The notes under the pieces: model-generated
What the model saw: only the letters and a program-made list of their open reading frames with translations
What the model was told of the DNA's origin: nothing
Databases searched by the model: none
Origin: Gemmatimonadota bacterium
GTDB taxonomy: Bacteria; 4572-55; J002
Assembly: GCA_003697105.1 (NCBI GenBank)
Contig: RFFQ01000075.1
Location: forward strand, 1 to 62,316
Reading direction: 5' to 3'
Length of the DNA: 62,316 nt
Program-made: the position numbers and the translations under genes
In this document: positions 190 to 62,316 of the stretch, in pieces
Position numbering within the stretch: the stretch's first letter is position 1
How the letters are laid out: the number at the start of each line of letters is the position of its first letter

Positions 190-240
190 ACAAAATCAAG
201 TGAGATATATCTTAATTATATTGTTCGTGGAGAAGGGCTT

Positions 241-1551: not shown

Positions 1552-1566
1552 ACGATGGAGGTTTTC

Positions 1567-4446: not shown

Positions 4447-4474
4447 TCCCTGAGAAAAAGCAAGCCGCTGATGC

Positions 4475-6217: not shown

Positions 6218-6237
6218 GCGACTTCATTAGCAGAAGC

Positions 6238-7425: not shown

Positions 7426-7445
7426 AGCGTCCTCAGCTTATCTCT

Positions 7446-10256: not shown

Positions 10257-10330
10257 GCGTAATAAACAGTGCCTTTCCTCTACAGAACACAGACATAAGT
10301 GACTGATTTCATAGTTATCTGATACATCAA

Positions 10331-10359
10331 AGATTATCATAATCCGCCCAGAATGTCAA
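10331..10359 (-). promoter_or_regulatory. Promoter of the barrel-pilT-GGDEF-pilB operon
   Basis: On the minus strand TTGACA (10359-10354) is followed after 15 or 17 bases by GATAAT or TAATCT. It lies about 75 bases upstream of the ATG at 10256. Confidence 0.5.
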
Positions 10360-10401
10360 TAAAAAGAATCTGGCAGGTCACCCACAGGAAACGGAAGGCA
10401 A

Positions 10402-10433
10402 ACAAAAAAGCGGCTTCTATAAAGAAGCCGCTT
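10402..10433 (-). terminator. Intrinsic terminator after tRNA-Ser(GCU)
   Basis: An 11-bp perfect stem (AAGCGGCTTCT with its complement) and 4-base loop, followed on the minus strand by a run of T. It lies 9 bases past the CCA of the tRNA and would insulate the pil operon from tRNA transcription. Confidence 0.85.
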
Positions 10434-10439
10434 GGACGT

Positions 10440-10533
<94 letters not shown>

Positions 10534-10558
10534 TATTCCTATAAAGTTTCTATCGTTT

Positions 10559-10648
10559 TGGCGGTGGGAGTAGGATTCGAACCTACGGTCGGCTCTCACC
10601 GACAACGGTTTTCAAGACCGCCGCAATAAACCACTCTGCCATCCCACC
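10559..10648 (-). tRNA. tRNA-Ser (anticodon UGA)
   Basis: A 90-base class II tRNA on the minus strand. GGTGGGA pairs with TCCCACC, CCA is encoded, and the anticodon loop CTTGAAA holds TGA, which reads UCN serine codons. It has a long variable arm. The second serine tRNA follows 25 bases downstream, so the two are one transcript. Confidence 0.95.
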
Positions 10649-10678
10649 AAATTGGGTATGAACGGGTCTGGATTGGGC

Positions 10679-10707
10679 AATATAGCCCCTGAAGTGAATC
10701 TAGTCAA
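10679..10707 (-). promoter_or_regulatory. Promoter of the two tRNA-Ser genes
   Basis: TTGACT (10707-10702), a 17-base spacer and TATATT (10684-10679) on the minus strand, about 30 bases before the first mature tRNA base. Confidence 0.65.
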
Positions 10708-10760
10708 CAAAAAAATGGAACGGAGTTGACGGCGTATCCCGGCCCAAACGATAGAGAACA

Positions 10761-13313
10761 TTACCGGATCAGGATCATTTTTCGGGTCTGGTAGAAGTCA
10801 CCGGTATGCAACTGGTACACATACATTCCACTTTGTACTGCCTGACCCGCTTGATCCGTACCATCCCAAGGGATGGTGTACGATCCGGAGCTTTGCAACG
10901 GCTGGTACCACTGCCGGATCAACCGCCCCGCCAGATCATAAATGGATAACGTCACGTTTGCCACTCGGGGTAAATCGTACCGGATCGTCGTGTTTGGATT
11001 AAACGGATTGGGCACATTTTGATATAGCTCAAATTGCGACGGGGTCGTAACGGTGGTAAGCTGGGGTTCCACATCCACATACAACTCGCTACCATAAATC
11101 GCAAAATTATCAATGAACCATCCCCATAGCATCCGATTTGTACTAGAGAAGCGAAAGCGGATCATAATGCGCTGAAATGCATAGGGTAGCAGGTCAAAAT
11201 AATCCCGCCGCCAACCGTTACTATCGCCGGTAAATCCGGGACGACCGCCAAGCGCCACCACGGATGCATCCGGATACCCCCCTACCGGATGAAGGATCGT
11301 CCATGTTTCGCCATTATCTACCGAAATTTGCACGTTACCGCCATCCCACCCTTCCACGGTGCTGTACCAGTGGTAAAAAGCAATCCCAAAACGTCCGCTA
11401 CCATCCGAAGTCATATTGTATTCAGGGGTGTAGAGGTAGGAATTCCGGTTTGGATCGTAACGATCATCCAGATCAATACCCCAGCACATGGAACCGGAAT
11501 AGGCGTGAGTGGGACCACCCGAGGGTAACGGTACTCCCCATTCCCATTCTGAACGGGTTTCGGTACCAAAATCACCGTCATCGGCTTCAAAATCAAAGAC
11601 CGGAACCACCCAGTATTCCACGTAGAGCGTTTCACCGGCAGTAATTGTCACCGTATCTTGCACCGAATCAAAACCGGAAGCAAACGCTTCTAACAGATAT
11701 TCCCCCGCAACCATATGTTCGACCTCAAAATAGCCGATTTCAGCATAGAGGGTATCCGGCGTCATTTCGGGATGGTGGAGCACAACCGTCACCGCCTCGA
11801 TAAAGGGAAAGTCACCACCCGCAACATTGAATACCCACCCTTCAAGGGACCCTCGCCCCAGCGGGCGTAAGGGGAGGTCAACGGGTGTAGGCACATCTTC
11901 ATGGATAGTCACGGTGAAGGTGGTATCCGCATAGCCAAAAGCGGAAACGGTTACGGTGTAATCCCCCGGGGAGAGCAACCGGTCATAGCGTCCAAATTGG
12001 GCATCGGTTACGCGGGGGGCAAACGTTTCCGGGAGTTCAATCTCTGCCACCTCAACTTCGGCGACGACCGGATCACCGGTTTCGGCGTCCGTGACATGCA
12101 ATTCCAGTTTCGACCGTAACGCCCGATCCATAAAATAAGTGGTGATCGGAAAACTCTCATCAATCCAACTTTGAATTTCGGAACCCGGCGGGATAAACTG
12201 GTTACACATCTCTACCGTATAGGAGAGCGTCCCCAGTTGGGAATACGCCCAATCCGTAAGATCACCATGTGTCGGATAAAGTTCGTACCCTTGCTGGGGT
12301 TGGTACCCGTTAATCGCCGCCATCGCGTAAGCCAGTTCGGTTAAAACATCTTCATCCGGAGCCGGATATTGCACCGAACTATACGGGTAGAGAATTAATT
12401 CCCCATGAGTATGAAATGTAATCAGTGAAACGGGACGTTGTTCAAGGCACAAATCCCGAATCGCCTGATTTTCCGGCTCAGAGAACGGCGCTTCCCCATG
12501 ATAGACCGGGTCGGCGGGGTCGGTTTCGCCATTTTCCCAACTATAACTATAATTCCGGTTGGGGTCCACCCCATCATAATCATCAATATATTCATTGTTA
12601 TTATTGTCATGGACATTTTTACGCCACCAGACATCAAAATCCGTCACCACCAAATGATGCCCATCGGGATTTAAGATAGGTATGAGCCAAATTTCGCTGT
12701 TATCCACGTATCGTTGAACCGCTTCGTTTTCGGCATACTCATCGGCAAGATACGTCAGGATTTCCATCACCATATTGACGGTGATCGGCTCTCGGGCATG
12801 ATGTAACCCACAAAACAGGACGGCGGGCTCATCTTCCTCGACTTCCACATTGTCAGAAATTTTTACCGCCCAAATATCATGAGGTAGATAATCGTTATCA
12901 TTCGGTCGATTGACCTTCGCCCACGAATCCCCAATATCATAAACCTTGAAAATATCGGGATAGAGGTTTTCGTAAAGTTGGATGGTCTCGACCACTTCGT
13001 CATAGCTGTCGTACTCGGAATCAATGGTAATATCACCCAAAGAGTCAATCAACACGGAATAGGAATACCCGGCACGAGTCAAAGCGGCGGCTTGCTCCGG
13101 TGTTACGATCACTTCCATGTATTCATTGGGACGGAGGGCACCATCTCCGGCTAAATCCAAATTGAAATCCCACAATCGCTGGTATTGTTCCGGGTCGGTG
13201 GTTTCAATTTTGATCAGCATGTGTTCCGGTTCGCTCGCCCAGAGTGTTACCGGATGCAACCCCCCACAGCACAGCATCAAAATTAAGAACATAAATGATA
13301 AATTCATACGCAT
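10761..13313 (-). CDS. Secreted M14 zinc carboxypeptidase with type IX sorting domain
   Basis: A secreted metallocarboxypeptidase of the carboxypeptidase T/A family. The ATG follows GGAGG by 7 bases. After a signal peptide (to WAS) and an N-terminal pro-region, the M14 domain spans about 100-400. It shows the zinc motif GLHHARE near 168-172, a second zinc histidine in FHTHGE, and the catalytic glutamate in SYTVEMC. Two carboxypeptidase-regulatory-like domains follow, then an immune-inhibitor-A/MAM-like domain (about 590-745). A FlgD-like sorting domain with NVPNPFNP and a basic C-terminus MILIR ends the protein. Together with the two subtilisins and the metalloprotease it forms a set of exported peptidases. 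Confidence 0.93.
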   Translation of the reverse strand: MRMNLSFMFLILMLCCGGLHPVTLWASEPEHMLIKIETTDPEQYQRLWDFNLDLAGDGALRPNEYMEVIVTPEQAAALTRAGYSYSVLIDSLGDITIDSEYDSYDEVVETIQLYENLYPDIFKVYDIGDSWAKVNRPNDNDYLPHDIWAVKISDNVEVEEDEPAVLFCGLHHAREPITVNMVMEILTYLADEYAENEAVQRYVDNSEIWLIPILNPDGHHLVVTDFDVWWRKNVHDNNNNEYIDDYDGVDPNRNYSYSWENGETDPADPVYHGEAPFSEPENQAIRDLCLEQRPVSLITFHTHGELILYPYSSVQYPAPDEDVLTELAYAMAAINGYQPQQGYELYPTHGDLTDWAYSQLGTLSYTVEMCNQFIPPGSEIQSWIDESFPITTYFMDRALRSKLELHVTDAETGDPVVAEVEVAEIELPETFAPRVTDAQFGRYDRLLSPGDYTVTVSAFGYADTTFTVTIHEDVPTPVDLPLRPLGRGSLEGWVFNVAGGDFPFIEAVTVVLHHPEMTPDTLYAEIGYFEVEHMVAGEYLLEAFASGFDSVQDTVTITAGETLYVEYWVVPVFDFEADDGDFGTETRSEWEWGVPLPSGGPTHAYSGSMCWGIDLDDRYDPNRNSYLYTPEYNMTSDGSGRFGIAFYHWYSTVEGWDGGNVQISVDNGETWTILHPVGGYPDASVVALGGRPGFTGDSNGWRRDYFDLLPYAFQRIMIRFRFSSTNRMLWGWFIDNFAIYGSELYVDVEPQLTTVTTPSQFELYQNVPNPFNPNTTIRYDLPRVANVTLSIYDLAGRLIRQWYQPLQSSGSYTIPWDGTDQAGQAVQSGMYVYQLHTGDFYQTRKMILIR

Positions 13314-25203: not shown

Positions 25204-25277
25204 AACTCCCCAACTCCCGAACTCCTAAACTCCCGAACTCGTCAAACTCCCCAACTCCCCAACTCCCGAACTCGTCA
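25204..25277. repeat. Tandem octamer/nonamer repeat (AACTCCCN family)
   Basis: Nine consecutive units of 8-9 bases, each beginning AACTC, in the order CCC, CCG, CTA, CCG, GTCA, CCC, CCC, CCG, GTCA after that pentamer. A 22-base block recurs exactly 33 bases apart (25228 and 25261), a higher-order period. The minus strand reads GAGTTNGG repeatedly and is G-rich. It fills most of the gap between the AsmA-like stop and the methyltransferase start. Confidence 0.85.
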
Positions 25278-25284
25278 AACTCAC

Positions 25285-28200
25285 TTATTCCACAACTTCC
25301 ATTTGTTGAATCAACTGTCCGACGGAAAGACCGGTTACCGGGATGGGATTCGGTAAGTGTAAGCGGAAAAGGGGTGTTCGGAGCCAAAACGGCGGGCGCA
25401 AATAAACGGACACGTTCAAAATACCCAAATTTACCCGCGAGGTAAATCGCTCAATCTTATAACCGGATTTCATCAAAGTACGGACACCCGCCAAGCTGGG
25501 GTCTTTCTGATCCGGGTCGAGAAAGAGCAGCAGGCGGTCTGCCACATGTTCCCCGATTTCTGTAATATCAAACTCACCGGACAAATCAAAATCGTGCTCA
25601 AAATCCAGCCCTTTGCCTTGGAATGCAAAATTAGTGGTCAGTAGCACTTGTTCCTTTTGCAACGAGGTGCGACCCACCAGCGCATCAAAATCCACGTTGG
25701 TGAGTTCGCCATAGGCACGATAGTGCATCTCCGGCAAGATGCCATTGGCGGTATCAAAATACATCGAACCCCATAGCTGCCCCCCATAAAGCGTCAATTC
25801 AATTTCATCCAGATAGATTACGTTATCCTCAAACCGCGCGACGACCTGAACATCATCGGCATGATAACGACCCCAGCGGATGCTGTCAATTGTTACATGG
25901 GAGCGCTCATTTTCCGGTAATTGATCGTAATACGGGGCTAAAAACCAGTAATCTGCTTCCTTCAGCTTTTGCTGGTGTGTTGCTTGCGGATAGGCGACGC
26001 GGGACAGGGGGGATTTTCTCCCTTGTACCACATCGACATCCACCACATAATGAAACGGCACGTAACCCGTTGTTTGGTGGATTGCCAGTGCCGGTGCTTG
26101 CTGAAAATAAACGGCATCCAAGCCCAAACTCCCCTCCACTTGAAACTGATTCGGCAAATTATCCCCCAGCACCTGCGGAAAATACCGGCTAAGCGTTAAT
26201 TGTAGGGCAACATTCCCCCCCAATTGCGAATCCAAAGGTAAATGTAACGGGTCATCCGCACGAGCCAGAGAAAACCGGCATAATACATCAGGATAGACCT
26301 GCTCTAAAAGCTGTTGATTGGCTGCGGAAACCCGTTCCGAGCGAGGTAGGGTCGTATCTGACAACGTCTGTAAATATCGGTCTATATTGACATTATAAAT
26401 GGTGCCCTGTAGGGAGGCATTCACCTGTTCCCGCGGAATCAAAAGTTGCCAATCGCGCAAATCGAGCAGATCACCCGGTTCTAATGCCATTGTGGCACGG
26501 AATTCTACCAGACCGGTATCTTCCAGATCACCTGCCGGCAATAGTCCGTGGATATTTTTTATCTGCGTTTCCCAGCGCAATTGTTTCTGACCCGGTTGCC
26601 AATCGAGATGAATTGAGCCGGAGATGTCTTGACACTCTACGGCGAATGTTGGATCCGCTTGCCGAACGGGTATGTGTTCCAGCTTAGCATACACCGGGTT
26701 CAGACCCAGCGTTGCCTTTAACTGGTGTGGAAGTTCCGTTAGCCCTTTTTCCGGCGTACTGCTATCAAATTGACCCTGAAATATCCATTCGGATTGGAGT
26801 TGTCCCTGAGCTGTTACCCGTAAGCCGGCAGATTCCGGTGTATGGGGCACTAAATAACGCAATTCCATTTGTGGCGTCGTACCCTGTAAGTGTAAATTTA
26901 GGTTGAATCCCGGATCGGTTTTTGAGGGGAAATGAGCGTCCACATCCCCGTATAGCTGGGTCTCCCCGTCAAACGTTTCGTAAACTGCCAACAAAGGCAA
27001 CCGGTCTGCCAGTGATAGATGATGTACCGTTAGGCTATCTATGTATAAATGTGCCTTCTCGTGCCCCCATTGATGGAGGTCTCCGGTCGCCCGCAGTTCA
27101 AGCGGTTCGGAAGCCACATTTAAATATGTTAGGTCAAGGTCGCCCCGCCATAAATTCCCTTTGATGCGGCTATTCAAGGTTACCGGCACATCTGTAAAAT
27201 CTACAACTAACGAATCTTCTTGAACCCAGGTAAAATCTGTTAAATCGGCATTTAGGTCAAGTGTGGTTTGGCGCAACAAACCCGCCAGAGATACGTCTGC
27301 ATTTAGAATACCGGTGCATTGCCGTAACGGTGAATTCAACAGGGCAACATCAAACCCCGACAAGTGAAACGTCCCATTTGCTGCCGCACGTGTGGAGTCG
27401 GCAATGTCGGTTACGGTCAATTTATCAGCGGTAAACCGCAGACCCCGCGCCCGGGCATCAAATAGGCTGAGCGATAGCATTTGCGGTTGGTAATCTGGGG
27501 TTAGGTGGATATCCACAATACCATACGCCGCCGCCGAAAATGGCGGTACTCCGGTGGTGCCCCATGACATATCATGGACCCAGAGCGAATCTAAAAACAC
27601 GGAAATATCCGTTGCATTGTGTTTAATATCGGCAAACAGATCGGCACGATAGCCGCCGATGGTGTGGCGCGTCTCTGGGGAAATAATGGTTACCGGATCA
27701 CCCTTGATCTGGGCAAACAGATCGATGTTTTCACGCGGAGACTGGAACGTCTCCCCCACCATGGTACTGACTTCCAGCGTTAGCGTGCCGGGAGTGATGG
27801 TCTGTTGCGGAGTACGAATTTCGTCGAGAGTTAGCATCGAATAAAACCACCAATTCCGCCCCCGGAACGGAAGCGCCGGGTTGGTAGAATCGACGATAAC
27901 CTGCGCGTTCAATTGCGAATCTAGGGTAATCGTGGAGACGCCGGTTTGGGTGCTCAGATGACGAAATTTCCCTTCCAAAAGCTGGCTATTGAGGGTTATC
28001 TCGAGAGGTTCATCTTCCGTTAATTGCCCTTTCATGCCGGAATCCCACACAATCAGGTCGCCCGCGAGTTCGACTGTGGGTGGAAAAAGTGCTGGGGCAA
28101 GGTGTTTTAGAGACGCCAAATTTAGTTGGCACGTTGTGACGTTCAATTCATAATGAGGAAAAGCACTGTACATCTCGCTCCATTCACCGCTCATCTGCAA

Positions 28201-52563: not shown

Positions 52564-53475
52564 CTATTTTGTTTCGGATGTCATTTTCTTTTTTAATACC
52601 AAAAGGCTAGCAAAACGCGGGTCAACCGTGGGAGGAATATCATTGAGGTCACCGGAAAATTCAAGCCTTTTTTCGGGACGCTTTTTGTCCGGTGTGTGGT
52701 TTGATTGGGGGGGAGAGGATTTCCGGTCTGACGTGGAATTCATCGTAGCATCATATCGCTCATGGAATTTTTGCACCGGATTCAGGGGTTCTGGGTGAAT
52801 TCGTTCTACCGTGGAATCGCTTTGGGTCGCCATTTGAGGGGAAGGGTGCGCCAATGCCCGAATGGATAAACTCAATTTTTGCCGTTTCGGGTCCACAGCC
52901 AACACCTTCACCGTCACCCGTTCCCCGATACAAACCACCTCTGCCGGATCGTGGACGTAATCTGGGGATAATTCCGAAATGTGAATTAAACCATCCCGTT
53001 TGACGCCCACATCCACAAACACACCGTAAGAGCAGATGTTTTTCACCGTGCCCTCCAACACCATGCCGGGGACGATATTCCGCAGATGGGTCGGCTGGAT
53101 CGGATTGCCCGAGGGCATCACCATAGAACCCAACTGTCCCATCTGTTTGTAAAAGATTTCCGCACTGCCACTGCGATAATAACTGCTTAGATAGGCAACC
53201 CAATACAAGATCGAGATCAGATCATCATCCGGCCGGTGAGCAAAGGCGGTCAAACCGGTGGAGTAAACCTCAAACATCTGTTGGAAATCCCGTCCATTTT
53301 CAGCCAGCGGCTGTTCCGGTTCGCTCATCGCTTGGAGAAAGCGCAAAACAAGTTCCACGTCTGGATGGGTTTCAGCGAAATGTGCCACCTGCAAAGCCGC
53401 TTGGGGGCTGACATGGTGCCGTGCTAGCTCTTCTGCCATTTGATGTGCTTTTTGCCACGTACCGGTCGTAAACAT
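52564..53475 (-). CDS. S1 RNA-binding-domain protein coupled to the CRISPR operon
   Basis: A 303-residue protein. Residues 1-125 are helical and not recognised (aromatic-rich ILYWVAYLSSYYRSG near 89-103). An S1 domain spans about 134-208 (GMVLEGTVKNICSYGVFVDV, then KRDGLIHISEL), of the type found in Tex-like and ribosomal-S1 proteins. A low-complexity linker and a tail ending VDPRFASLLVLKKK complete it. Its ATG overlaps the stop of the preceding RAMP gene as TAATG, so it is translationally coupled to the CRISPR genes. I do not know this architecture as a standard type III component. A role in binding crRNA or target RNA is inference. A housekeeping gene caught at the operon end is the alternative. 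Confidence 0.7.
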   Translation of the reverse strand: MFTTGTWQKAHQMAEELARHHVSPQAALQVAHFAETHPDVELVLRFLQAMSEPEQPLAENGRDFQQMFEVYSTGLTAFAHRPDDDLISILYWVAYLSSYYRSGSAEIFYKQMGQLGSMVMPSGNPIQPTHLRNIVPGMVLEGTVKNICSYGVFVDVGVKRDGLIHISELSPDYVHDPAEVVCIGERVTVKVLAVDPKRQKLSLSIRALAHPSPQMATQSDSTVERIHPEPLNPVQKFHERYDATMNSTSDRKSSPPQSNHTPDKKRPEKRLEFSGDLNDIPPTVDPRFASLLVLKKKMTSETK

Positions 53476-54374
53476 TACGTATCCCCCTTGGGTACAAAGT
53501 GCCAGAGCTGTTGTAACTGCTTAAAAGCATCCTCAACAAGGTAAAGTTGCTTGGCGGCAAGCATCAGCGGGCGCGGGTCATTCATGACCCGGCGGGAAGG
53601 CGCCTCGTTCAAAAAATAGCGTTGCGGGTCCACCAACTGAATTTCAGCGGGTTCAAAGGCAATAACACCATATCCCATTGGCGGCGTGAGTTGGAAGGCA
53701 AAAAAAAGTAAGCCCACCTGCCCTTTGGTCAGATTTTCAAAACGGATGGAACACTGAAACCGTGCGCCCGGCAAACAGATTTCCGTGGGGATATTTCCGG
53801 CAGGAGTTGGCGTGTAGCGATAGAATAGCCGTCCATTAATTGCGTTTTGCTGACGTTCTGAAGGTGGTGGGGACGGGTTGGGGGGCAACTTCCGTATTCC
53901 CAGTTCCCCCTCATCCAAATACGCATCGGAAATCTCCAATTGCCCGCGGTAGCCTTTCGTGCCAAACAGTTGCTCCACCAAATCGAGTTGCCACCGGCGC
54001 GCCGGGTCATTGGGATGAAGAGGCAACATCCGGTTAGGGATATGCTGAATCTGGTGACGGGGAAATTGGCTCAACCCACAAGGCGAAATGGTTTCCAAGA
54101 TGGAGCGCAACAGCCCCTTAACCGCCGTACCGGGAAGGGCAACGCGACCATTCGCCCGGAAATGAGCCCGGTACAGGCGGGCAGGATCGTGTGTATCATC
54201 CATGTTCAACCGCCCATCACCTAGATGTATCGGTGCTTTGACGCGGAGATATAGCGTCAGCGAACCGTTCAAATAGCGGACGTTCAGCCGGTGATGACCG
54301 GCGGGTCGGTTCCGTCGCACCCCACCCGGTGGAAACGGAATCACATCATGGGAAGATGGTGTGGGGGGAGTCAT
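53475..54374 (-). CDS. Cas7-like RAMP protein, type III effector subunit
   Basis: A 299-residue RAMP protein. After a disordered N-terminus of about 30 residues, the first strand LTLYLRVKAPIHLGDG leads into an acidic loop NMDDTHDPARLY. Next come the RAMP motif LPGTAVKGLLRSILE (about 99-113) and FGTKGYRGQLEISDA. The glycine-rich turn PPMGYGVIAFEP occupies the usual RAMP G-loop place. Aspartates in the loop leave open a target-RNA cleaving role. The start overlaps the csx19-like stop as ATGA. It is the last recognisable Cas gene before the S1 gene. Confidence 0.85.
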   Translation of the reverse strand: MTPPTPSSHDVIPFPPGGVRRNRPAGHHRLNVRYLNGSLTLYLRVKAPIHLGDGRLNMDDTHDPARLYRAHFRANGRVALPGTAVKGLLRSILETISPCGLSQFPRHQIQHIPNRMLPLHPNDPARRWQLDLVEQLFGTKGYRGQLEISDAYLDEGELGIRKLPPNPSPPPSERQQNAINGRLFYRYTPTPAGNIPTEICLPGARFQCSIRFENLTKGQVGLLFFAFQLTPPMGYGVIAFEPAEIQLVDPQRYFLNEAPSRRVMNDPRPLMLAAKQLYLVEDAFKQLQQLWHFVPKGDT

Positions 54375-54913
54375 GCAATACCTTTCCAGCGTAGAAATTG
54401 GGTTGCCCCCGTGAAGGCATCACAATAACGGATAGCAGTCAGATAAACCTGCTCCGGTGCATCCTCTACCGGGTAGGTCAAAGTGTGGGGGATGCGCTCC
54501 GCCCGCCATCCCTGCCGTTCGGTATCGTAAATTCCCCACAAGGGGTAATTGGCAACCTGTGTACCGGTTTCCGGCAACCGGAAGCGATCCGACTGGTCCA
54601 CCATACCGGGCAGCCTCAATATGGTATCGAGAGTGGTTTTAGATTCAGTCAAAAATCGTAGGTCCAGCCGCTCCGAATCGACCCATCGCCAGTGCATCAG
54701 AACGGTTTCATTGAAGATTTCGCCAGTAGCGGCAGTCGGAATGAGCCGGATCGCATCCGCGGCAATATCCTGTTCCAAGGGACATGCTCCCGGTTGAAAT
54801 CGACAGACAAAAAGCATCGAGTTACCCAAAATGGATTTCAAATTGGCTTGTAAGTCTTGCCATGTTACTCCTGAGCCGGTTGCCACCCCGGCAAAGGTAG
54901 GTTTACTTCTCAT
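54371..54913 (-). CDS. csx19: Csx19-like (TIGR03984-type) type III-D protein
   Basis: A 180-residue protein started at ATG 54913, with GGAGG 6 bases upstream; the longer frame is upstream-gene shadow. No RAMP glycine loop is seen. The pattern of short strands (FNETVLMHWRW, LDLRFL, YPLWGIYD, GWRAERIPHTLTYP) and a C-terminal AIRYCDAFTGATQFLRWKGI fits my recollection of the Csx19 family, which is associated with III-D loci. Similarity is weak by eye, and position between two RAMP genes is the main support. Exact role in the complex is not known. Confidence 0.55.
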   Translation of the reverse strand: MRSKPTFAGVATGSGVTWQDLQANLKSILGNSMLFVCRFQPGACPLEQDIAADAIRLIPTAATGEIFNETVLMHWRWVDSERLDLRFLTESKTTLDTILRLPGMVDQSDRFRLPETGTQVANYPLWGIYDTERQGWRAERIPHTLTYPVEDAPEQVYLTAIRYCDAFTGATQFLRWKGIA

Positions 54914-55862
54914 TTGCGACCTCCATCCGCCAGCGCTCCACACCACATCGCCAGAGCGCCGTTTGATCAATATCATTTTGCAAAATTAGTTCTACCCCGC
55001 GCCATATATCTTCTGTATAATGTAGGTGTTCGGGCAAGGGAGTTCTATCGTCGGGTGATAAAAAATAATCCTTCGCCAAGGGGGAAAGTGCCCCCGCCCC
55101 ATATAATTGATCGGCACAGCCGATTCGCCGCCCGTTGAGCAACTCCAACTGGTCACCGTGAAGACGGCACGCCGGATACCGCAGACTGAAATGGGTGACA
55201 TCTGCCTTAATCTGCCCCAACCCGCGCGAACGCCCCGCACCTAACCGCAATTGTCCGGTTTGCAAATCGCGCAATACAATCGCCAGCAAGCCGAATTGAC
55301 CCAAGGTGAAATTTTTGAGTGTTAGCACGGTTTCAAACGAGCCTGCCATGATCACTTCAAACGCGCTTTTCGATGCTGGGATCGCCTCCCCCAACACCCG
55401 GTCGATGGCAACCGTGTGCCGATTTTCGGTAATTACCTCGGCGTTCGGATACGCATCCGCAATGCTTATCCGGCTGGCCAAATAACGATTGCCAAACAAG
55501 CGACAGGTGGTACAGGACTCGCGATAAATCTCCGTAGCAGGGGGAACCGGCGTTCCTTTGGATTTGAAAAAGGCGTTACAACTGTAGCGAGTCCCATCAC
55601 CGGTATTCCGTTCGGAGCGGTCACCCAGCGGGTTACAACTCCAGACAGCCCCTTCCAGTGTGCGGTTAATTCGTTCCACGTGTTGGCGTAACATCCCCCG
55701 CAAGCTCGTGCCGGGCAAGTAAACCACACCGCCGGTACGGACACATTGAATTTCCGGGCGGGTGGGGTCACTGCCAAATTCATTTTGTCCGCGGATCAAG
55801 AGGGGTTGCACGACCGAGATCGTTAGATCAAGCCGAAGTTCGTTCACCAGTTGGTTATGCAT
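54903..55862 (-). CDS. Csx7/Csm3-like RAMP protein with acidic catalytic loop
   Basis: A 319-residue Cas7-type backbone subunit. It opens ISVVQPLLIRGQNEFGSDPTRPE, with D32 in the loop where Csm3 carries the target-RNA cleaving Asp. The RAMP motif YLPGTSLRGMLRQ follows. Four cysteines (C76, C95, and CTTC at 117-120, then RLFGNRYLASRI) probably bind zinc, as in the Csx7 type. A GAGRSRGLGQIK glycine loop ends the core. The start overlaps the preceding csm3-like stop by 8 bases. Likely the subunit able to cut target RNA. Confidence 0.85.
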   Translation of the reverse strand: MHNQLVNELRLDLTISVVQPLLIRGQNEFGSDPTRPEIQCVRTGGVVYLPGTSLRGMLRQHVERINRTLEGAVWSCNPLGDRSERNTGDGTRYSCNAFFKSKGTPVPPATEIYRESCTTCRLFGNRYLASRISIADAYPNAEVITENRHTVAIDRVLGEAIPASKSAFEVIMAGSFETVLTLKNFTLGQFGLLAIVLRDLQTGQLRLGAGRSRGLGQIKADVTHFSLRYPACRLHGDQLELLNGRRIGCADQLYGAGALSPLAKDYFLSPDDRTPLPEHLHYTEDIWRGVELILQNDIDQTALWRCGVERWRMEVANEK

Positions 55863-56574
55863 CGTTTCTTCTTCTCCTTGCCACTCCGGCGATTTCCGTG
55901 TGAAAAGCGGCTAACCAGCGTTGTTCAATTTCGGCGGGAATCTCATCTGCCGGAGACCCATGTTGTAAAAAATGGAGTAGCGTCTGTGGCTGACCATCGT
56001 ATTCAAACCAGCGCCGGTCGGTCACATCCAATTTGACCCGTCCCAGCCCCCGATTTTTGAATCCGCCCAACGTTAGCTCACCTCGTTTTAGGGCATGGAG
56101 TCCCACCAGCAACAGTCCGAACTGTGCATCTTTCAGATTTTCCGCCACCAACCGGAAGCTAAACACCGTTTCCGGGGGTACTATCTCGTATTGATAACGG
56201 CTGTTCGGGATCATCGTTCGCGTATGCCGGTGAACTGAGAGACCTTGTCGCAAATGAATGCCGGCAGTGCCGGTTTCGGTCACCAGCGGCAGGTCATCAA
56301 TTTGAACACGTCCGGCAAGGTGACGGGCGCCAAACACCGGCTCAAGCCATGATGCGGTCTCATCCGTACCAAGTAAGGTCTCCAGAATGGCTGCCAGATG
56401 GGCACGCAAGGCACCTTTGACGGTTGACCCGGGGATGAACGGCTGACCGAGGGCATTGCGCAGGAGTGGCGCACCGTTGTGTAATGCCACCATTTGTGCC
56501 GAACCAATGCGAATCGCGGTCACGGTTCGTAACGTACCTTCCAGCCAGAGTTGGTTTTGCAGGGTGTCGCTCAT
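55855..56574 (-). CDS. Csm3-like RAMP protein lacking the catalytic aspartate
   Basis: A 239-residue Cas7 backbone subunit. Motifs: FIPGSTVKGALRAHLAAI (46-63), VFGARHLAGRVQIDD, a conserved GLSVHRHTRT stretch, and GGFKNRGLGRVKL. The loop before IPGS reads VALHNGAPLLRN, with Asn or Gly at the position where Csm3 has its cleaving Asp and no acidic residue nearby. It may be a structural copy only. The ATGA overlap with the small-subunit stop shows coupling. Confidence 0.88.
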   Translation of the reverse strand: MSDTLQNQLWLEGTLRTVTAIRIGSAQMVALHNGAPLLRNALGQPFIPGSTVKGALRAHLAAILETLLGTDETASWLEPVFGARHLAGRVQIDDLPLVTETGTAGIHLRQGLSVHRHTRTMIPNSRYQYEIVPPETVFSFRLVAENLKDAQFGLLLVGLHALKRGELTLGGFKNRGLGRVKLDVTDRRWFEYDGQPQTLLHFLQHGSPADEIPAEIEQRWLAAFHTEIAGVARRRRNDA

Positions 56575-57104
56575 CTGGGATGACCTTCCGCCGATTTTTT
56601 CCGGTGCCGAGACCGCCGCTTACCAGAGGCAAAGACCAGATTATCCCAATCCTGAGTGGTATGCCCGTACACAAAACAGCGGTAAACATAACCTAGATAG
56701 AGCTGGGTAAGACGCAAATGCAGTTCACGCCGGTAGAGCGACAGATTCGCACCCGCAAGATGTTGGCGGGCATACGCCAGCACGCCCTCTACGGCTTGAA
56801 ATACAGCGCCCTCACGATGTTCCACATCATAAATGATCCACTCGCCAAAACTGTTGTGACGCCACCCACGATGACCCACTGCTTGCCCGATGTAATAACG
56901 CACATTGTTAGTAATCGCCTCGATACTGGAGGTAGTTTGCGCCACGTTCAGCAATTGTTGGAGATGTTCCGGTTGGATAATGTGGTCATCCCGCAACTTT
57001 TTGGCACAGCGCCCTGCCGCCTGAATGATCGCGTCCAATTGAGCATCAATACCGCGCTGAAAAATAAGTTCTCGTCTGAGGCGACGTTCCTGATCCGTTT
57101 GCAT
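56571..57104 (-). CDS. Putative type III small subunit (Csm2/Cas11-like)
   Basis: A 177-residue, mostly helical protein. The ATG 57104 has GGAGG 6 bases upstream and lies 59 bases inside the end of csx10. A middle segment QLLNVAQTTSSIEAITNNVRYYIG recalls the TSQIR region of Csm2-type small subunits. The C-terminus is strongly basic (GKRRSRHRKKS), suitable for nucleic-acid contact. The position between csx10 and csm3-like genes is where III-D operons carry the small subunit. No other gene of the operon is a candidate for that role. Identification is by context and helical character rather than clear motif. Confidence 0.55.
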   Translation of the reverse strand: MQTDQERRLRRELIFQRGIDAQLDAIIQAAGRCAKKLRDDHIIQPEHLQQLLNVAQTTSSIEAITNNVRYYIGQAVGHRGWRHNSFGEWIIYDVEHREGAVFQAVEGVLAYARQHLAGANLSLYRRELHLRLTQLYLGYVYRCFVYGHTTQDWDNLVFASGKRRSRHRKKSAEGHPR

Positions 57105-58089
57105 GGTTTTCCTCCGGCTCCGCGAATACGTGCATCTCGGAGCAGATTTTAATCTGACCAAACCCTTCTGCAGTGCGTTCCCCCAACCCGTCCCGTTCAA
57201 TAGCCGTTAAGACCGGGATCAGCGTTGCCGGGTCACTGGCGGTACGGCAGAGATAACAACTCCCCATCTGGGCAATCACCGTGGTCGGGCGTGGTAATCC
57301 CCACGCGCCGTTCCATCCACCTTGATAACCGTGCTGTACTTCCGCCCAAACGACCGTTACGCGCCCCTCACCCCAAATTCGATTTAATTCGGTTTGAGGA
57401 TTGAGCGTGGGGCACCGATCGGGGGTTTGAAAAATGGCATTTGATTGCAGATCAAGGGTAAAATAAACATCATGAGAATCCGATTTGAATCGATCCGGTA
57501 AATGCCGGTTGAATTGCTCCAATCGATCCGCAACATCCATTTGGGGAGGGGGATCAACCGCTTCGATAGTTACCTGACCAAAACCGCGTGTTTTCCCCGC
57601 TCCGACTGTGGTGATCTTTTGGAGCCATTCCGAGACCGGCAACTCGGACGAAATCGCGGTAAAAAAGGTTGTGGGCTGGAATTGCTGGTCTTGCCACTGG
57701 ACTTCCGAGATCACCGGCCGGCCGAGATAACGGGTATCCACAAAAACCGGAATCAATTGCTCTTGCTGGAGATACCCATAGCGGGTCAAGGGCGGTGCAT
57801 TTCTCCCGTTCGCAAAAGGAGTTTGCGGATCATAACCCCGCGAGATTCGGGGTCTCACCGGTAATGGAATAACCTCACTCCAGTGCGACCGGTGCGCTAG
57901 ATAGGCATTGCGGAAAATCACCGGCGATTCCGTGCCACACAACGCCTGAAATAGCGGGTCATCGGCAGAGATGCCCTCCTCGTGCAACAAATGATACGCC
58001 AAAGCGCCTCGCAAAACCGCTCCAGGGATATAGTCCGGATCGACCGCTACGGGAGATAACGCCGTAATGCGGTAAAAATGCGTGATCAT
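57046..58089 (-). CDS. csx10: Csx10 (Cas5-like RAMP of type III-D)
   Basis: A 347-residue RAMP protein, predicted to cap the crRNA 5' handle end of the complex as Cas5/Csm4 does. It starts at ATG 58089 (GGAGG just upstream, ATGA overlap with the previous stop). YIPGAVLRGALAYHLL near 20-35 and two glycine loops, TVGAGKTRGFGQVTIE and GLGERTAEGFGQIKI, mark two RAMP domains. A LCGTESPVIFRNAYL segment matches the insertion after the first helix. Csx10 is the signature of subtype III-D, so this gene fixes the subtype call. Confidence 0.8.
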   Translation of the reverse strand: MITHFYRITALSPVAVDPDYIPGAVLRGALAYHLLHEEGISADDPLFQALCGTESPVIFRNAYLAHRSHWSEVIPLPVRPRISRGYDPQTPFANGRNAPPLTRYGYLQQEQLIPVFVDTRYLGRPVISEVQWQDQQFQPTTFFTAISSELPVSEWLQKITTVGAGKTRGFGQVTIEAVDPPPQMDVADRLEQFNRHLPDRFKSDSHDVYFTLDLQSNAIFQTPDRCPTLNPQTELNRIWGEGRVTVVWAEVQHGYQGGWNGAWGLPRPTTVIAQMGSCYLCRTASDPATLIPVLTAIERDGLGERTAEGFGQIKICSEMHVFAEPEENHANGSGTSPQTRTYFSARY

Positions 58090-58628
58090 GGCACCTCCAC
58101 TTGTGGATTGGCAGGCATACCATCCATAAAAGCATGTGCTTGAACCGTTACCCGTCCTACCCCGCGCGAACGGCTTCCGCCGAGATGATGAATGTGGCGC
58201 AAACTCAACAACAACCATGCTAAATCCTGTTCCGCGGATGATGCCGGTAGATACCCTTCAATGGCACGAGGATGCGCCGCCACACCGCCGGGCGCATCCA
58301 GCACCGGGATGGCAAAGAATCCTGACGGCAAAGGAGTGCCCGTCTGCCGGTCTAGCGCCAAACCGAAACGCGGCTGAACCTCCCCTGCATTCACGATCAT
58401 ATCATGATACCGCAAGTGACACGGTGCTTTCGCCGATCCCACGAGCCGGCAAATCACCCCCTGACCGGTACCGGAAATCGTCTGCAAAATACGGGTTAGA
58501 TGGTACCGGACCTGCCGTTTTAAGAGTGCACCGGGCACAATCACTTGTCCCCGTCCATTACGCGCCGTTGGCGGGAGTGCCAGCGCATGCTCAATCTGGA
58601 GCGTCACGTCAATATGAATAGAGCGCAT
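58086..58628 (-). CDS. Small Cas7-like RAMP protein
   Basis: A 180-residue RAMP subunit, short for Cas7. AAGGAG lies 6 bases before the ATG. IVPGALLKRQVRYHLTRI (30-47) is the RAMP helix motif and GGSRSRGVGRVTV the glycine loop. The segment before the motif (ALPPTARNGRGQV) has no acidic residue, so RNA cleavage by this copy is unlikely. It sits between cas10 (83-base gap) and csx10. Confidence 0.82.
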   Translation of the reverse strand: MRSIHIDVTLQIEHALALPPTARNGRGQVIVPGALLKRQVRYHLTRILQTISGTGQGVICRLVGSAKAPCHLRYHDMIVNAGEVQPRFGLALDRQTGTPLPSGFFAIPVLDAPGGVAAHPRAIEGYLPASSAEQDLAWLLLSLRHIHHLGGSRSRGVGRVTVQAHAFMDGMPANPQVEVP

Positions 58629-58711
58629 CCGTCTCTCCTTAGTTTCAGATGGATCGGGTTGAACATATTTCTGTCTCCGCTATATTAACATATTCGGATG
58701 CCCTTTTCACA

Positions 58712-60850
58712 TTAACCATACACCGCCACCGCACGGTGGTCTTCCAGAGACAGCAACTCCATGACATCCGCTAAGGGGGTATAGTAATGCTCATCATCGC
58801 TGTTGAGCCACGGGGGCGTCAGAAAATCCCATTGATGCTCAAAAGCGTCTCCCCACACTGCCGGTAGCAAAGGTTGTTCGGCGGATTTTGCGGTACGCCA
58901 GGTTAAATACGCCAGAATTGCCGGCAAAAATCCCTGTTTTAGACTGGCTTGCAACTGGTATATTTCTGGTGCAGAGCATCCAATCTGTTGGAATCCGCGC
59001 AGGGCGTGCAACAGCCCTTCCAGCTCCGCTACGGTGTACGGTGCGCCGGTTAGATGGTACGTGCAGGTATCCGTTTCAGGATGGACGGTACGTTCGATGT
59101 CTCGCCAGTGGGTCAACTGGTGTGTTAGGGGAGTACCCGGTGACCTGAATACACGAAAATCGATCACACTAAGGCAATACCCCCCTTTCCGATACAATGT
59201 TGCCTGATAATTTGCCGCGGAATACGTCAATTGATCCAGTTGGTGGCGGATGATCGGGGGGGGTGTTTTTAACGACGTGAACAGAACGCCGGCATTTAGG
59301 GTAACTGCCGGTAGCGTTCGGTGGTCACAACGCGCCGGTAGATAGCGCTGAACCGGCATACTCACTGGATTTTCCACCTCGTATTGAAAGGCGGCTTCCA
59401 GATGTTCTGTAAAGGCGTGGGTTATACTCAAGGCGTGAACCGCTGGTAACATCAACAGGATTTCATCTTGGTTTAACACCAACACTTCAAACGGATGAAC
59501 CTCCCCCACCGGATGAAGATAACGGACGATACTTTGAAAGACAGCTTCTTGGACAGCAGATTGTACCTGCGCGGCACCGCACGGTATTGCTACCAAGGAT
59601 TCCGCCGGTAGGTCAACCTGAATTTTGGCACGGACAAATCCCACTAGAGATGTGCCCAGTTCTGCCGGTGTCGCTAAAAATCGGAGACTATCGAGAGGCA
59701 CATCGCCCACATACTGTTTTTGCGCCGCCGAATGCGTCTGCAAAAACGTCACAAACTCGGTCTGCCATGACGGGGTAAATGGAGGATGCCAATTGAGCGT
59801 GGGTTGCCATTTTGCCGGGTAGTCCAAATATGCCTGCTGGCGAGCACATACTTCGCACAAGTGCTGGTGCCGGTAGGACACAAGGGAAGGGCGCAAGTTG
59901 CACACCTCACAGCGCTGAACGTAAGGAAAAAGTTCAAAATGCGGCACCGGACGATCCCAAGCATCGGGGCGGTGCCGGAGCCGCTCTAAATGCGTAATCA
60001 CATAAGAAAACCCGCCGGGTATGCGGGTCGAATGCGGTTCTGCTTTGTGCCATACTTCCGTTAATGAGAATGGCGCGGCGGTAATGATGTAAGGCAGGGT
60101 CAGCGTCTCTGCCAAGATCGATGTTTCAATTTGAGAGGGCAAACTGGCCAGTTGGGAGACCGGTAAAAGGGCAATTTGGGTTATTCCACTGGAGATCACA
60201 CATTCTGGACAGGCGGAAAACCGAGCCTGAACGTGTTGGAACGCACTATCCAACATTCGGGACGCCCCGCAAATGGAGGCAACGGACGTACCCTCAAAAC
60301 GGAAATCCTCAGGATATTGAAAACTGCCATACATCACCCCAATTCGGGCATTTATCGCCTGCGGAAATGCGGGGTCCAAAAGCGCCCCGTGTACCGTTAA
60401 TAAAGGTCGGGCAAAGGGCTCTACTTGGGTGAAAAACTCGTCAAGCGACTGCCCCGCCGTTAGAACACCGCTATGTTGCTGTTCTAAAAGGGCATGTACA
60501 TACTGGAGCCGGGTGAATTGCGCAGGGGATAAGACCCGCTCTGAAAGCAAATGGCGAGTGCGGGACGGTAGCCCGTAGCTCAACGCCGCAAACCGCAGCA
60601 ATGGCAATTCTACCGGTTCGAGCAAATCATACCCTAAACAATACGTGAGTGCCGAAAAGCAACAAAGCCGGCTTGCGACAACTTGGGCATGGGAATCGTG
60701 TGAGGGAAGTGTTCGATATAATGAGATAAGACGATGGCAAACATCGGAAAGATGAAAGGGTTGCTCTGGTTCAATCAGACCAACGTGTATTTGGCGCAAT
60801 TCAGATAAAAAATGTAAGCCAGCCCCGCCCGGAAAATGATCCGCTGACAT
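58712..60850 (-). CDS. cas10: Cas10-family large subunit with degenerate palm
   Basis: The large type III subunit, 712 residues from ATG 60850. AGAGG precedes that ATG by 7 bases and a promoter lies just upstream; ATG 60904 is in frame but falls between the -35 and -10. No HD nuclease signature is seen in the N-terminal 290 residues. A zinc finger CEVC...CEVC (about 312-333) is as in Csm1. The second palm reads VLVLNQDEILLMLPAVHAL near 455-473, with NQDE (459-462) replacing GGDD. The first metal-binding strand reads FVRAKIQVDLP instead of the usual aspartates. Cyclic oligoadenylate synthesis is therefore unlikely. It heads the CRISPR operon. Confidence 0.82.
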   Translation of the reverse strand: MSADHFPGGAGLHFLSELRQIHVGLIEPEQPFHLSDVCHRLISLYRTLPSHDSHAQVVASRLCCFSALTYCLGYDLLEPVELPLLRFAALSYGLPSRTRHLLSERVLSPAQFTRLQYVHALLEQQHSGVLTAGQSLDEFFTQVEPFARPLLTVHGALLDPAFPQAINARIGVMYGSFQYPEDFRFEGTSVASICGASRMLDSAFQHVQARFSACPECVISSGITQIALLPVSQLASLPSQIETSILAETLTLPYIITAAPFSLTEVWHKAEPHSTRIPGGFSYVITHLERLRHRPDAWDRPVPHFELFPYVQRCEVCNLRPSLVSYRHQHLCEVCARQQAYLDYPAKWQPTLNWHPPFTPSWQTEFVTFLQTHSAAQKQYVGDVPLDSLRFLATPAELGTSLVGFVRAKIQVDLPAESLVAIPCGAAQVQSAVQEAVFQSIVRYLHPVGEVHPFEVLVLNQDEILLMLPAVHALSITHAFTEHLEAAFQYEVENPVSMPVQRYLPARCDHRTLPAVTLNAGVLFTSLKTPPPIIRHQLDQLTYSAANYQATLYRKGGYCLSVIDFRVFRSPGTPLTHQLTHWRDIERTVHPETDTCTYHLTGAPYTVAELEGLLHALRGFQQIGCSAPEIYQLQASLKQGFLPAILAYLTWRTAKSAEQPLLPAVWGDAFEHQWDFLTPPWLNSDDEHYYTPLADVMELLSLEDHRAVAVYG

Positions 60851-60894
60851 CCGCCGTCCTCTTAATGACTTAAGGGTTTGATCGATAGATTTGT

Positions 60895-60923
60895 ACTCTA
60901 TCATAGCCCTCAGCAAAAGTCAA
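60895..60923 (-). promoter_or_regulatory. Promoter of the cas10 operon
   Basis: Minus-strand TTGACT (60923-60918), 17 bases, TAGAGT (60900-60895). Transcription would start near 60888, leaving a leader of about 38 bases before the ATG at 60850. Confidence 0.5.
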
Positions 60924-61153: not shown

Positions 61154-62316
61154 ATGGACAACCGTAGCATCATAAAGCCTTTAATTGAGGGGTTCAGCTC
61201 AGAGAGATTGAGCAACCTCCTGCGCCGGATCGCCCCTGCTTTCCGGCCGGATACCAAGCTATTAGACGATTTTATCCAGGATGATTGGCCTTTTGATTCC
61301 GCACAAAAGCTAGGCGTCATCGAACTTCCGGGGTCTCAAACTATCCTGGTGGGCGTTGTTCATGTGGCGCGCGAACTGACTTCCCGCTCCAGCAAGAAGA
61401 CGCAGTACGAATTAGGCAAGCGCATCCTCAAGGCTTACAACAGTAACGGCGGCATCTTCGCTTTCTACGATGACAATGGACGCTTCCGTCTTTCCCTCAT
61501 CACCGTCACCTACTCCGGCACCCGCCGACAGTTCAGCACCTTCCGGCGCTACACCTTTTTCGTTGAGCCGGAGCTGCCCAACAAGACGTTTATCAACCAG
61601 ATCGGCCGGGCGGATTTTTCCAGCCTGGAGCAGATTCTGGAAGCCTTCTCCCTGGAAGTGGTCTCCGACGCCTTTTATCAGGAGTTTAAGCCCAAATTCG
61701 ATGCCATTGCCGCGGCAGTACAAGGAGCGAATGACGCAGCTTTGCAACAAGATTTCGCCTTGTTGTTTGCCATCCGGGTCATCTTCCTGGGATTTGTCCA
61801 AAAGAAAGGCTGGCTGGGGGACAACCCGAGCTTTTTACAAGACTTCTGGCAGGAATATCAGAATAGCAACCCGTCCGCAAATACCTTCTACAAGGATTGG
61901 CTGGAGCCGCTCTTCTTTGAAGCCCTCAACTCCCCACCCGGACGCAAGGTGGCTTATGGTAACGCACCCTTCTGCCAGAAGACCCAGACTGCCCTGCAAA
62001 TGGCACCTTATCTCAACGGCGAACTCTTCAAGCACAAGCAAGGCGTCGATGACCAGAGCCTATGGCTTCCCGATGACCTGATCGGCGACTTTTTCGACTT
62101 TCTCTTCCAGTACAACTTCACCGTGGAAGAAAACGAACTCTACGACGAGGAACTGGAACTCAATCCCGAATTCCTGGGCATCATCTTCGAGCGGCTGACC
62201 AATATGGACCAGGGTGCAGTTTACACCCCGCGCGTGGAAGTGGACTTGATGTGCCGTCTGGCTCTGGTGCAGTGGCTGGCGCAAAGCACCGACATTGATA
62301 AGCGCGACCTGTACCA
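61154..62316 (+). CDS. Type IIG (Eco57I-like) restriction-modification enzyme, 5' part
   Basis: An open frame from ATG 61154 continues without a stop to the window end (387 codons visible). The N-terminal 330 residues look like the region that precedes the methylase in large single-chain R-M proteins. LGFVQKKGWLGDNPSFLQ near 215-235 is one family landmark. ELNPEFLGIIFERLTN near 333-348, then GAVYTPRVEVDLMCRLAL, is the segment just before the SAM-binding motif in Eco57I-type enzymes. The SAM and NPPY motifs would lie beyond the edge. It prefers C- or G-ending codons more than its neighbours, suggesting recent transfer. A BREX PglX-like methylase is an alternative. Confidence 0.8.
   Translation, partial: MDNRSIIKPLIEGFSSERLSNLLRRIAPAFRPDTKLLDDFIQDDWPFDSAQKLGVIELPGSQTILVGVVHVARELTSRSSKKTQYELGKRILKAYNSNGGIFAFYDDNGRFRLSLITVTYSGTRRQFSTFRRYTFFVEPELPNKTFINQIGRADFSSLEQILEAFSLEVVSDAFYQEFKPKFDAIAAAVQGANDAALQQDFALLFAIRVIFLGFVQKKGWLGDNPSFLQDFWQEYQNSNPSANTFYKDWLEPLFFEALNSPPGRKVAYGNAPFCQKTQTALQMAPYLNGELFKHKQGVDDQSLWLPDDLIGDFFDFLFQYNFTVEENELYDEELELNPEFLGIIFERLTNMDQGAVYTPRVEVDLMCRLALVQWLAQSTDIDKRDLY

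What the first reader, a model, noticed from the sequence alone, without database searches (positions are those of the whole stretch)
52564..60923. Compact III-D-like CRISPR effector operon that ends in a novel S1-domain subunit
Nine genes run in one direction from one promoter: cas10, small RAMP, csx10, putative small subunit, csm3-like, csx7-like, csx19-like, RAMP and S1 protein. From csx10 to the S1 gene every junction overlaps (ATGA, TAATG or longer). Csx10 and a Csx19-like gene point to subtype III-D. The window has no cas6, cas1/cas2, array, CARF nuclease or other known signalling effector. The combination of a degenerate Cas10 with a coupled S1 protein is not a standard composition I know.
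Basis: partly seen in the sequence, partly recalled or inferred. Interest (0 to 1): 0.85.

Follow-up and report, generated by a model that had tools for sequence, protein, structure and literature searches.

The report
Signalling-dead CRISPR complex with S1-type subunit
This is a bacterial type III-D CRISPR immune operon whose alarm-signal enzyme and two of three RNA-cutting subunits look disabled, while its last gene turns out to be an S1-domain version of a conserved but unstudied subunit (Csx21), which suggests that Csx21 proteins are RNA-binding parts of these complexes.

Summary
The nine-gene operon is real and intact, on the minus strand from 60916 to 52564. It has the core gene order of one branch of type III-D: cas10, cas7, csx10/cas5, cas11, cas7, cas7, csx19, cas7, csx21. 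Eighty related loci from Cyanobacteria, Poribacteria and Chloroflexota showed this.

The S1 protein is not a new subunit. It is Csx21 in its usual place, downstream of the fourth Cas7; Csx21 is in 75 of 77 testable loci. In most members the Csx21 C-terminal domain is a diverged OB/S1 fold (AlphaFold2 plus Foldseek). It is a clear S1 domain in this window and in one Poribacterium, and a cold-shock domain in one Anaerolineae genome.

What is unusual is the loss of catalysis. Cas10 has NQDE instead of GGDD, found in all 68 relatives with that region. Its ADGNN metal motif is deleted, and I found no HD domain. Two of three candidate catalytic Cas7 aspartates are gone; one remains.

Cas6, cas4-cas1, cas2 and an array lie on another contig. 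A CARF-HEPN Csx1 lies beside cmr1 on a third.

Best reading: a signalling-dead III-D complex that binds RNA and cuts at no more than one site, with Csx21-S1 helping hold RNA. The function is inferred. New variant of a known kind.

The parts
58712..60916 (-). cas10 (large subunit), 734 aa from TTG 60916 or about 730 aa from ATG 60904; palm motif NQDE instead of GGDD; ADGNN motif deleted; no recognisable HD domain
   Evidence: PADLOC Cas10 6e-11; leave-one-out HMM E=6e-46; motif columns
58086..58628 (-). small Cas7-type RAMP ('cas7a', counterpart of the Cas7 part of III-Dv Cas7-Cas5-Cas11 by gene order); glycine-rich loop carrying the candidate catalytic Asp deleted
   Evidence: Pfam RAMPs 8e-5; leave-one-out HMM 6e-11; alignment
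57046..58089 (-). csx10 (Cas5 of III-D)
   Evidence: TIGR02674 140 bits, below its cut-off of 177; leave-one-out HMM 5e-51
56571..57104 (-). cas11 (Csm2-type small subunit)
   Evidence: PADLOC Csm2 5e-23; leave-one-out HMM 1e-24
55855..56574 (-). Cas7 of the Csx7 family (counterpart of Cas7-2x.1); candidate catalytic Asp replaced by Gly34
   Evidence: NCBIfam Csx7 9e-31; aligned to 8s9t_D, where D33 falls on G34; family alignment
54903..55862 (-). Cas7, Csm3-like (counterpart of Cas7-2x.2); candidate catalytic Asp32 in GxDPTxP retained
   Evidence: leave-one-out HMM 1e-76; Asp32 conserved in the family
54371..54976 (-). csx19
   Evidence: PADLOC Csx19 2e-9; leave-one-out HMM only 7e-4; position
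53475..54374 (-). Cas7 related to TIGR03986 / Cas7-insertion, without the large insertion
   Evidence: TIGR03986 1e-16, below cut-off; leave-one-out HMM 1e-39
52564..53475 (-). Csx21 with S1 domain: helical N-terminal domain (residues 4-116), S1 domain (about 137-206), predicted disordered tail (214-284) and C-terminal helix
   Evidence: S1 2.5e-19; PADLOC Csx21 0.0019; 31.6% identity over 250 aa to the Csx21 of L006, 8e-35; AlphaFold2/Foldseek; locus position

Best explanation
The operon encodes a complete multi-subunit type III-D effector complex that has lost second-messenger signalling. crRNA is probably supplied in trans by the genome's separate array, Cas6 and Cas4-Cas1/Cas2 module. Cas10, which has no recognisable HD domain and lacks both metal-binding motifs, remains as a structural subunit. 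Of the three Cas7 sites that cut target RNA in the related III-Dv complex, one counterpart keeps its aspartate, so target RNA is bound and cut at no more than one position. The last gene is Csx21, a conserved subunit or close partner of this III-D branch, whose C-terminal OB-type domain is here a canonical S1 RNA-binding domain. Most likely it docks through its helical N-terminal domain and uses S1 to hold single-stranded RNA (nascent target transcript or exposed crRNA end), raising capture when the complex has no signalling amplifier. Shown by computation: gene identities, order, motif losses, Csx21 family link, S1 fold. Inferred: dead cyclase activity, single-site cutting, docking, RNA capture, crRNA supply in trans.
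For: Core gene order shared with 80 related loci. Leave-one-out HMMs recover eight of the nine proteins and Csx19 weakly. GGDD in 68 of 68 relatives with that region against NQDE here, and ADGNN deleted; NQDE is not among the motif variants accepted as probably active in PMC11229360, and HD domains occur in only 3% of III-D Cas10s in that survey. III-Dv cuts at Cas7 D26, D33 and D246 (PMC11026444); the window lacks the first two counterparts and keeps the third. S1 protein to Csx21: best match is L006 Csx21 (8e-35 overall, 1.4e-5 for the N-domain alone), and L006 scores 1.6e-35 against a Csx21 model built without S1 members. Csx21 lies in 75 of 77 testable loci. AlphaFold2 models of cyanobacterial and window Csx21 show the same architecture, and both C-terminal domains match S1 domains. 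Array, cas6, cas4-cas1 and cas2 on C156. No frameshift or stop in any of the nine genes.
Against: The direct link of the window protein to Csx21 is modest without the L006 bridge (E=0.0017, though top-ranked of about 5,000 ORFs that are not called Csx21). A cyanobacteria-only Csx21 profile does not find S1 domains by sequence; that part rests on the fold (best E 2.5e-3). Cutting-site assignments are from alignment: the D32/D246 match is off by one in a weak alignment, and for cas7a the only PDB match was to a Csm3. No proof that the C156 array serves this operon: the genome also has Cmr-type systems. No complex, RNA binding or cutting was tested.
Confidence: 0.6

Rival explanations
1. The operon is a decaying III-D locus. 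Cas10, cas7a and csx7 are losing function and nothing replaces the lost activities; the S1 domain is incidental.
For: Two Cas7 aspartates and the Cas10 motifs are lost; cas7a keeps only 18 of 65 family-conserved columns; no ancillary or adaptation genes beside it.
Against: All nine frames are open with tight overlapping junctions although the proteins tested sit on long branches, so drift has had time to break them. r317 keeps 68 of 96 conserved columns including Asp32. S1 keeps the residues expected for RNA binding.
Confidence: 0.2
2. The complex is a non-cutting, RNA-guided binder that silences or marks transcripts by binding alone, with S1 adding affinity or recruiting a host RNase or the ribosome.
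For: Most catalytic centres are lost and an RNA-binding domain of ribosomal S1 type is present (closest PDB matches are bS1 domains).
Against: The r317 Cas7 keeps the aspartate and flanking motif conserved throughout the family.
Confidence: 0.12
3. The complex still signals, through a non-canonical Cas10 activity or by feeding the genome's Csx1 in trans.
For: A CARF-HEPN Csx1 is encoded on contig C13 next to cmr1.
Against: Both palm metal motifs are gone, and Csx1 sits with Cmr genes, pointing to a III-B Cas10 as its partner.
Confidence: 0.05
4. The S1 gene is an unrelated RNA-binding protein that happens to sit at the end of the operon, not Csx21.
For: Weak direct profile scores (PADLOC 0.0019; S1-free HMM 0.0017).
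Against: Same locus position, same predicted helical N-domain, 31.6% identity to L006 Csx21 with an N-domain match by itself, and top rank of about 5,000 ORFs.
Confidence: 0.05

Closest known systems
Multi-gene type III-D (III-D1-like) loci of Cyanobacteria, Poribacteria and Chloroflexota, e.g. Allocoleopsis plasmid pMIC7113.03
   Same: Same genes in the same order from cas10 to csx21
   Different: They have GGDD Cas10, mostly three candidate Cas7 aspartates, often CARF and PD-(D/E)xK genes inside the operon; nearly all have diverged Csx21 C-terminal domains
Synechocystis type III-Dv complex (PMC11026444; PDB 8s9t)
   Same: The same subunits in the same order, but there fused (Cas7-Cas5-Cas11, Cas7-2x, Csx19, Cas7-insertion); no functional HD
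   Different: Genes here are unfused, the last Cas7 has no large insertion, Csx21 is present, and cOA synthesis and two of three cutting sites appear lost
Csx21 family (PADLOC: III-A/III-D associated, function unknown)
   Same: Locus position, helical N-domain, C-terminal OB-type domain
   Different: A canonical S1 domain plus a long disordered tail instead of a diverged OB domain
Reductive type III variants III-C, III-F, III-G, III-H, III-I, III-E (PMC12669027, PMC11229360)
   Same: Inactive or lost Cas10 polymerase; III-E and III-I derive from III-D
   Different: Here the full multi-subunit III-D set remains, and there is no HD nuclease as in III-G/III-H

Membership tests
CRISPR type III-D | csx10 as Cas5-type subunit | tested here: met
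   TIGR02674 140 bits, below the 177 cut-off; PADLOC Cas5_IIId 2e-41; leave-one-out HMM 5e-51
CRISPR type III-D | csx19 usually present | tested here: met
   PADLOC 2e-9; weak in own HMM, 7e-4; correct position
CRISPR type III-D | Cas10 present, normally without HD and with active GGDD cyclase | tested here: not met
   Cas10 present and no HD domain recognised, but NQDE and ADGNN deleted. The cyclase is typical of III-D, not its signature, so this marks a variant rather than excluding III-D
CRISPR type III-D | Core gene order of the III-D branch | tested here: met
CRISPR type III-D | crRNA-guided binding and cleavage of target RNA | not testable with these tools
   Needs biochemistry
Csx21 | Helical N-terminal domain matching the family | tested here: met
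   Weak directly, firm through L006; same helices predicted
Csx21 | Gene follows the TIGR03986-type Cas7 at the end of the operon | tested here: met
   72 of 77 within 1 kb, 75 of 77 in locus; window adjacent, TAATG
S1 domain | Pfam S1 above curated cut-off and S1 fold | tested here: met
   69.9 bits against 22; Foldseek 2e-6; PDB sequence matches to bS1
III-Dv | Fused Cas7-Cas5-Cas11 and Cas7-2x, Cas7 with large insertion | tested here: not met
   Genes separate; last Cas7 299 aa
III-E / III-I | Single multidomain Cas7-11 effector | tested here: not met
   Separate Cas7 genes
III-C, III-G, III-H | Inactive palm with subtype-specific gene set | tested here: not met
   Palm motifs lost, but gene set is III-D

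The most novel reading that the evidence does not exclude
Csx21 is a general RNA-binding subunit of one III-D branch, with a conserved docking domain and an exchangeable OB-type head (diverged S1-like, canonical S1, cold-shock). In this lineage the head has become a strong RNA binder in a complex that gave up signalling and keeps a single RNA-cutting site: a signalling-free, multi-subunit III-D defence or RNA-silencing system.
Probability: 0.4. Interest if true: 0.75.

Novelty: new variant of a known kind. Interest (0 to 1): 0.55.

Why it matters
III-D has been described as working mainly through cOA signalling because so few of its Cas10s have HD (PMC11229360). A III-D locus with neither a recognisable HD nor a cyclase motif lets one ask whether target-RNA binding or cutting alone is enough. 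Independently, Csx21 is a conserved gene that I found mentioned in no paper of the library searched (open-licence papers only); recognising its C-terminal domain as an OB/S1-type module, with S1 and cold-shock versions, gives a testable idea of what it does. The unfused operon also matches, subunit for subunit, the III-Dv complex of known structure, so predictions can be placed on a known map.

Tried and rejected
Novel, unrelated S1 subunit: rejected once L006 and locus position linked it to Csx21. Csx21 N-domain as a Cas11 relative: hhalign against Csm2 gave 1% probability, and no fold match for the N-domain stood out among the top 50 Foldseek hits. S1 identity of cyanobacterial Csx21 by sequence: a first profile hit S1 domains, but this came from including L006; the cyanobacteria-only profile does not, so I rely on the fold only. 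S1 and dead Cas10 as a linked pair: rejected, since L006 has S1 with GGDD. Dead Cas10 unique in III-D: rejected, since more distant loci L137, L144 and L145 also lack one or both motifs. Csx21 as a replacement for the Cas7 insertion: L004 and L139 have a long last Cas7 and no Csx21, but L138, L141 and L146 have neither, so not supported. Close relatives by class or phylum: only one other genome held, without the operon. Viral contigs: none. Cas6 by PF01881: missed, found with PF10040.

Full report
Observation. The nine ORFs are present and intact on the minus strand. Family scans identify Cas10, four Cas7-type RAMPs, Csx10, Csm2/Cas11, Csx19 and an S1 protein. Junctions overlap from the small RAMP onwards; cas10 is separated from it by 83 nt, with a ribosome-binding site before the small RAMP. 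The contig ends at 62316, shortly after the start of a partial, divergently transcribed type IIG restriction-modification gene, so upstream context is missing.

Relatives. A scan of GTDB genome contigs with the most conserved Cas7 returned 80 loci: mostly Cyanobacteria, eight Poribacteria, four Chloroflexota. ORF calling and iterated HMMs showed one conserved order, cas10-cas7a-csx10-cas11-csx7-r317-csx19-r368-csx21, often with CARF and PD-(D/E)xK genes inserted; L006 is rearranged. HMMs built without the window recover eight of the window proteins and Csx19 weakly. A further search of 386 genomes gave twelve other genomes with a match, some of more distant III-D type, which mostly lack Csx21. 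Trees put the window on long branches; its place is unsure (r317 groups it weakly with L006 and Chloroflexota, csx10 with Cyanobacteria).

The S1 gene is Csx21. PADLOC gives Csx21 at E=0.0019 for residues 3-106, and in Allocoleopsis Csx21 holds exactly this position. Across loci with room to see it, Csx21 follows the last Cas7 within 1 kb in 72 of 77 and lies in the locus in 75. The bridge is L006 (Poribacteria): its Csx21 scores 1.6e-35 against a Csx21 model without S1 members, carries an S1 domain, and is 31.6% identical to the window protein over 250 residues; the N-domain alone matches at 1.4e-5 in a small database. Against the S1-free model the window protein ranks first among about 5,000 ORFs not called Csx21, at E=0.0017.

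Csx21 carries an OB-type head. AlphaFold2 predicts helices then a five-strand barrel for cyanobacterial Csx21 (mean pLDDT 86) and the same plan for the window protein (71, with a disordered tail). Foldseek matches both barrels to S1 domains of ribosomal S1, PNPase and GSP13, and the cyanobacterial one also to exosome subunits: best E 2e-6 for the window, 2.5e-3 for the cyanobacterial one. Pfam finds S1 in the window and L006 and a cold-shock domain at 4.9e-15 in one member, assigned to L020 from its sequence; the cyanobacterial member listed first in that scan matches no Pfam family. Sequence alone does not link cyanobacterial Csx21 to S1. The window S1 keeps aromatic (Tyr150, Phe153), His165 and Asp195 positions that, from general knowledge of S1 domains, bind RNA; the cyanobacterial versions lack the aromatic and His set.

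Loss of catalysis. Sixty-eight of 68 relatives with the region carry GGDD; the window has NQDE, and the ADGNN motif is deleted in frame. NQDE is not among the variants treated as likely active in PMC11229360. Two separate in-frame changes make a sequencing error unlikely. III-Dv cuts RNA at three Cas7 aspartates (PMC11026444). By alignment the window has lost two counterparts (loop deleted in cas7a; Gly34 in csx7) and keeps Asp32 in r317. Other dead or partly deleted Cas10s exist in more distant III-D loci (L137, L144, L145), so inactivation is not unique to this genome, only within this branch as sampled.

Rest of the genome. A 3.7-kb contig (C156) has three copies of a 36-nt repeat with 38-43-nt spacers at its edge, cas2, a cas4-cas1 fusion and cas6; the repeat was found nowhere else in the genome. 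RAMP genes elsewhere form parts of Cmr systems: C13 (WYL regulator, CARF-HEPN Csx1, cmr1 at the contig edge), C153 (cmr6 at the edge) and C48 (cmr1, cmr6, cmr4, cmr5). So crRNA supply in trans is possible, and the CARF effector sits with Cmr genes.

Mechanism. Most likely the operon makes a III-D complex that finds RNA by crRNA, cannot signal, and can cut at no more than one site, with Csx21-S1 adding RNA hold. Decay of the locus is the main rival. Intact, tightly coupled frames on long branches argue against it but do not exclude it.

Verdict. New variant of a known kind. The general point that may outlast this locus is that Csx21 is an OB-domain, probably RNA-binding, component of a III-D branch.

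Noticed in passing
L103 (own genome C48:8001-28000), 8533-11938 minus strand: cmr1, cmr6, cmr4 and cmr5 (III-C-like Cmr5 match) with no cas10 or cmr3 recognised among the neighbouring ORFs scanned.
   Followed up: partly
L104 (own genome C13) 216-3120: WYL regulator, CARF-HEPN Csx1 and the start of cmr1 at a contig edge: probably a III-B system split by assembly (cmr6 at the edge of C153).
   Followed up: partly
L003 (Allocoleopsis plasmid) 3058-7809: TniQ, an ATP-binding protein (TnsC-like by position) and a TnsA-type gene directly beside a complete III-D operon.
   Followed up: no
L006 3162-4586: A 475-aa gene with a SIR2-like N-terminal motif (LILGAGAS) lies between the last Cas7 and the S1-bearing csx21 of a Poribacterium; motif seen by eye only.
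   Followed up: no
L020 10961-11560: Csx21 of an Anaerolineae genome ends in a cold-shock-like domain (Pfam CSD 4.9e-15 in one of 53 members scanned) instead of S1.
   Followed up: partly
L137, L144, L145: Distant III-D loci whose Cas10 lacks GGDD (L137) or both palm motifs (L144, L145).
   Followed up: partly
window 61154-62314: Start of a type IIG restriction-modification gene, cut by the contig end, divergent from cas10.
   Followed up: no
window 25204-25297: Short tandem array of about 8 nt units (AACTCCCC).
   Followed up: no
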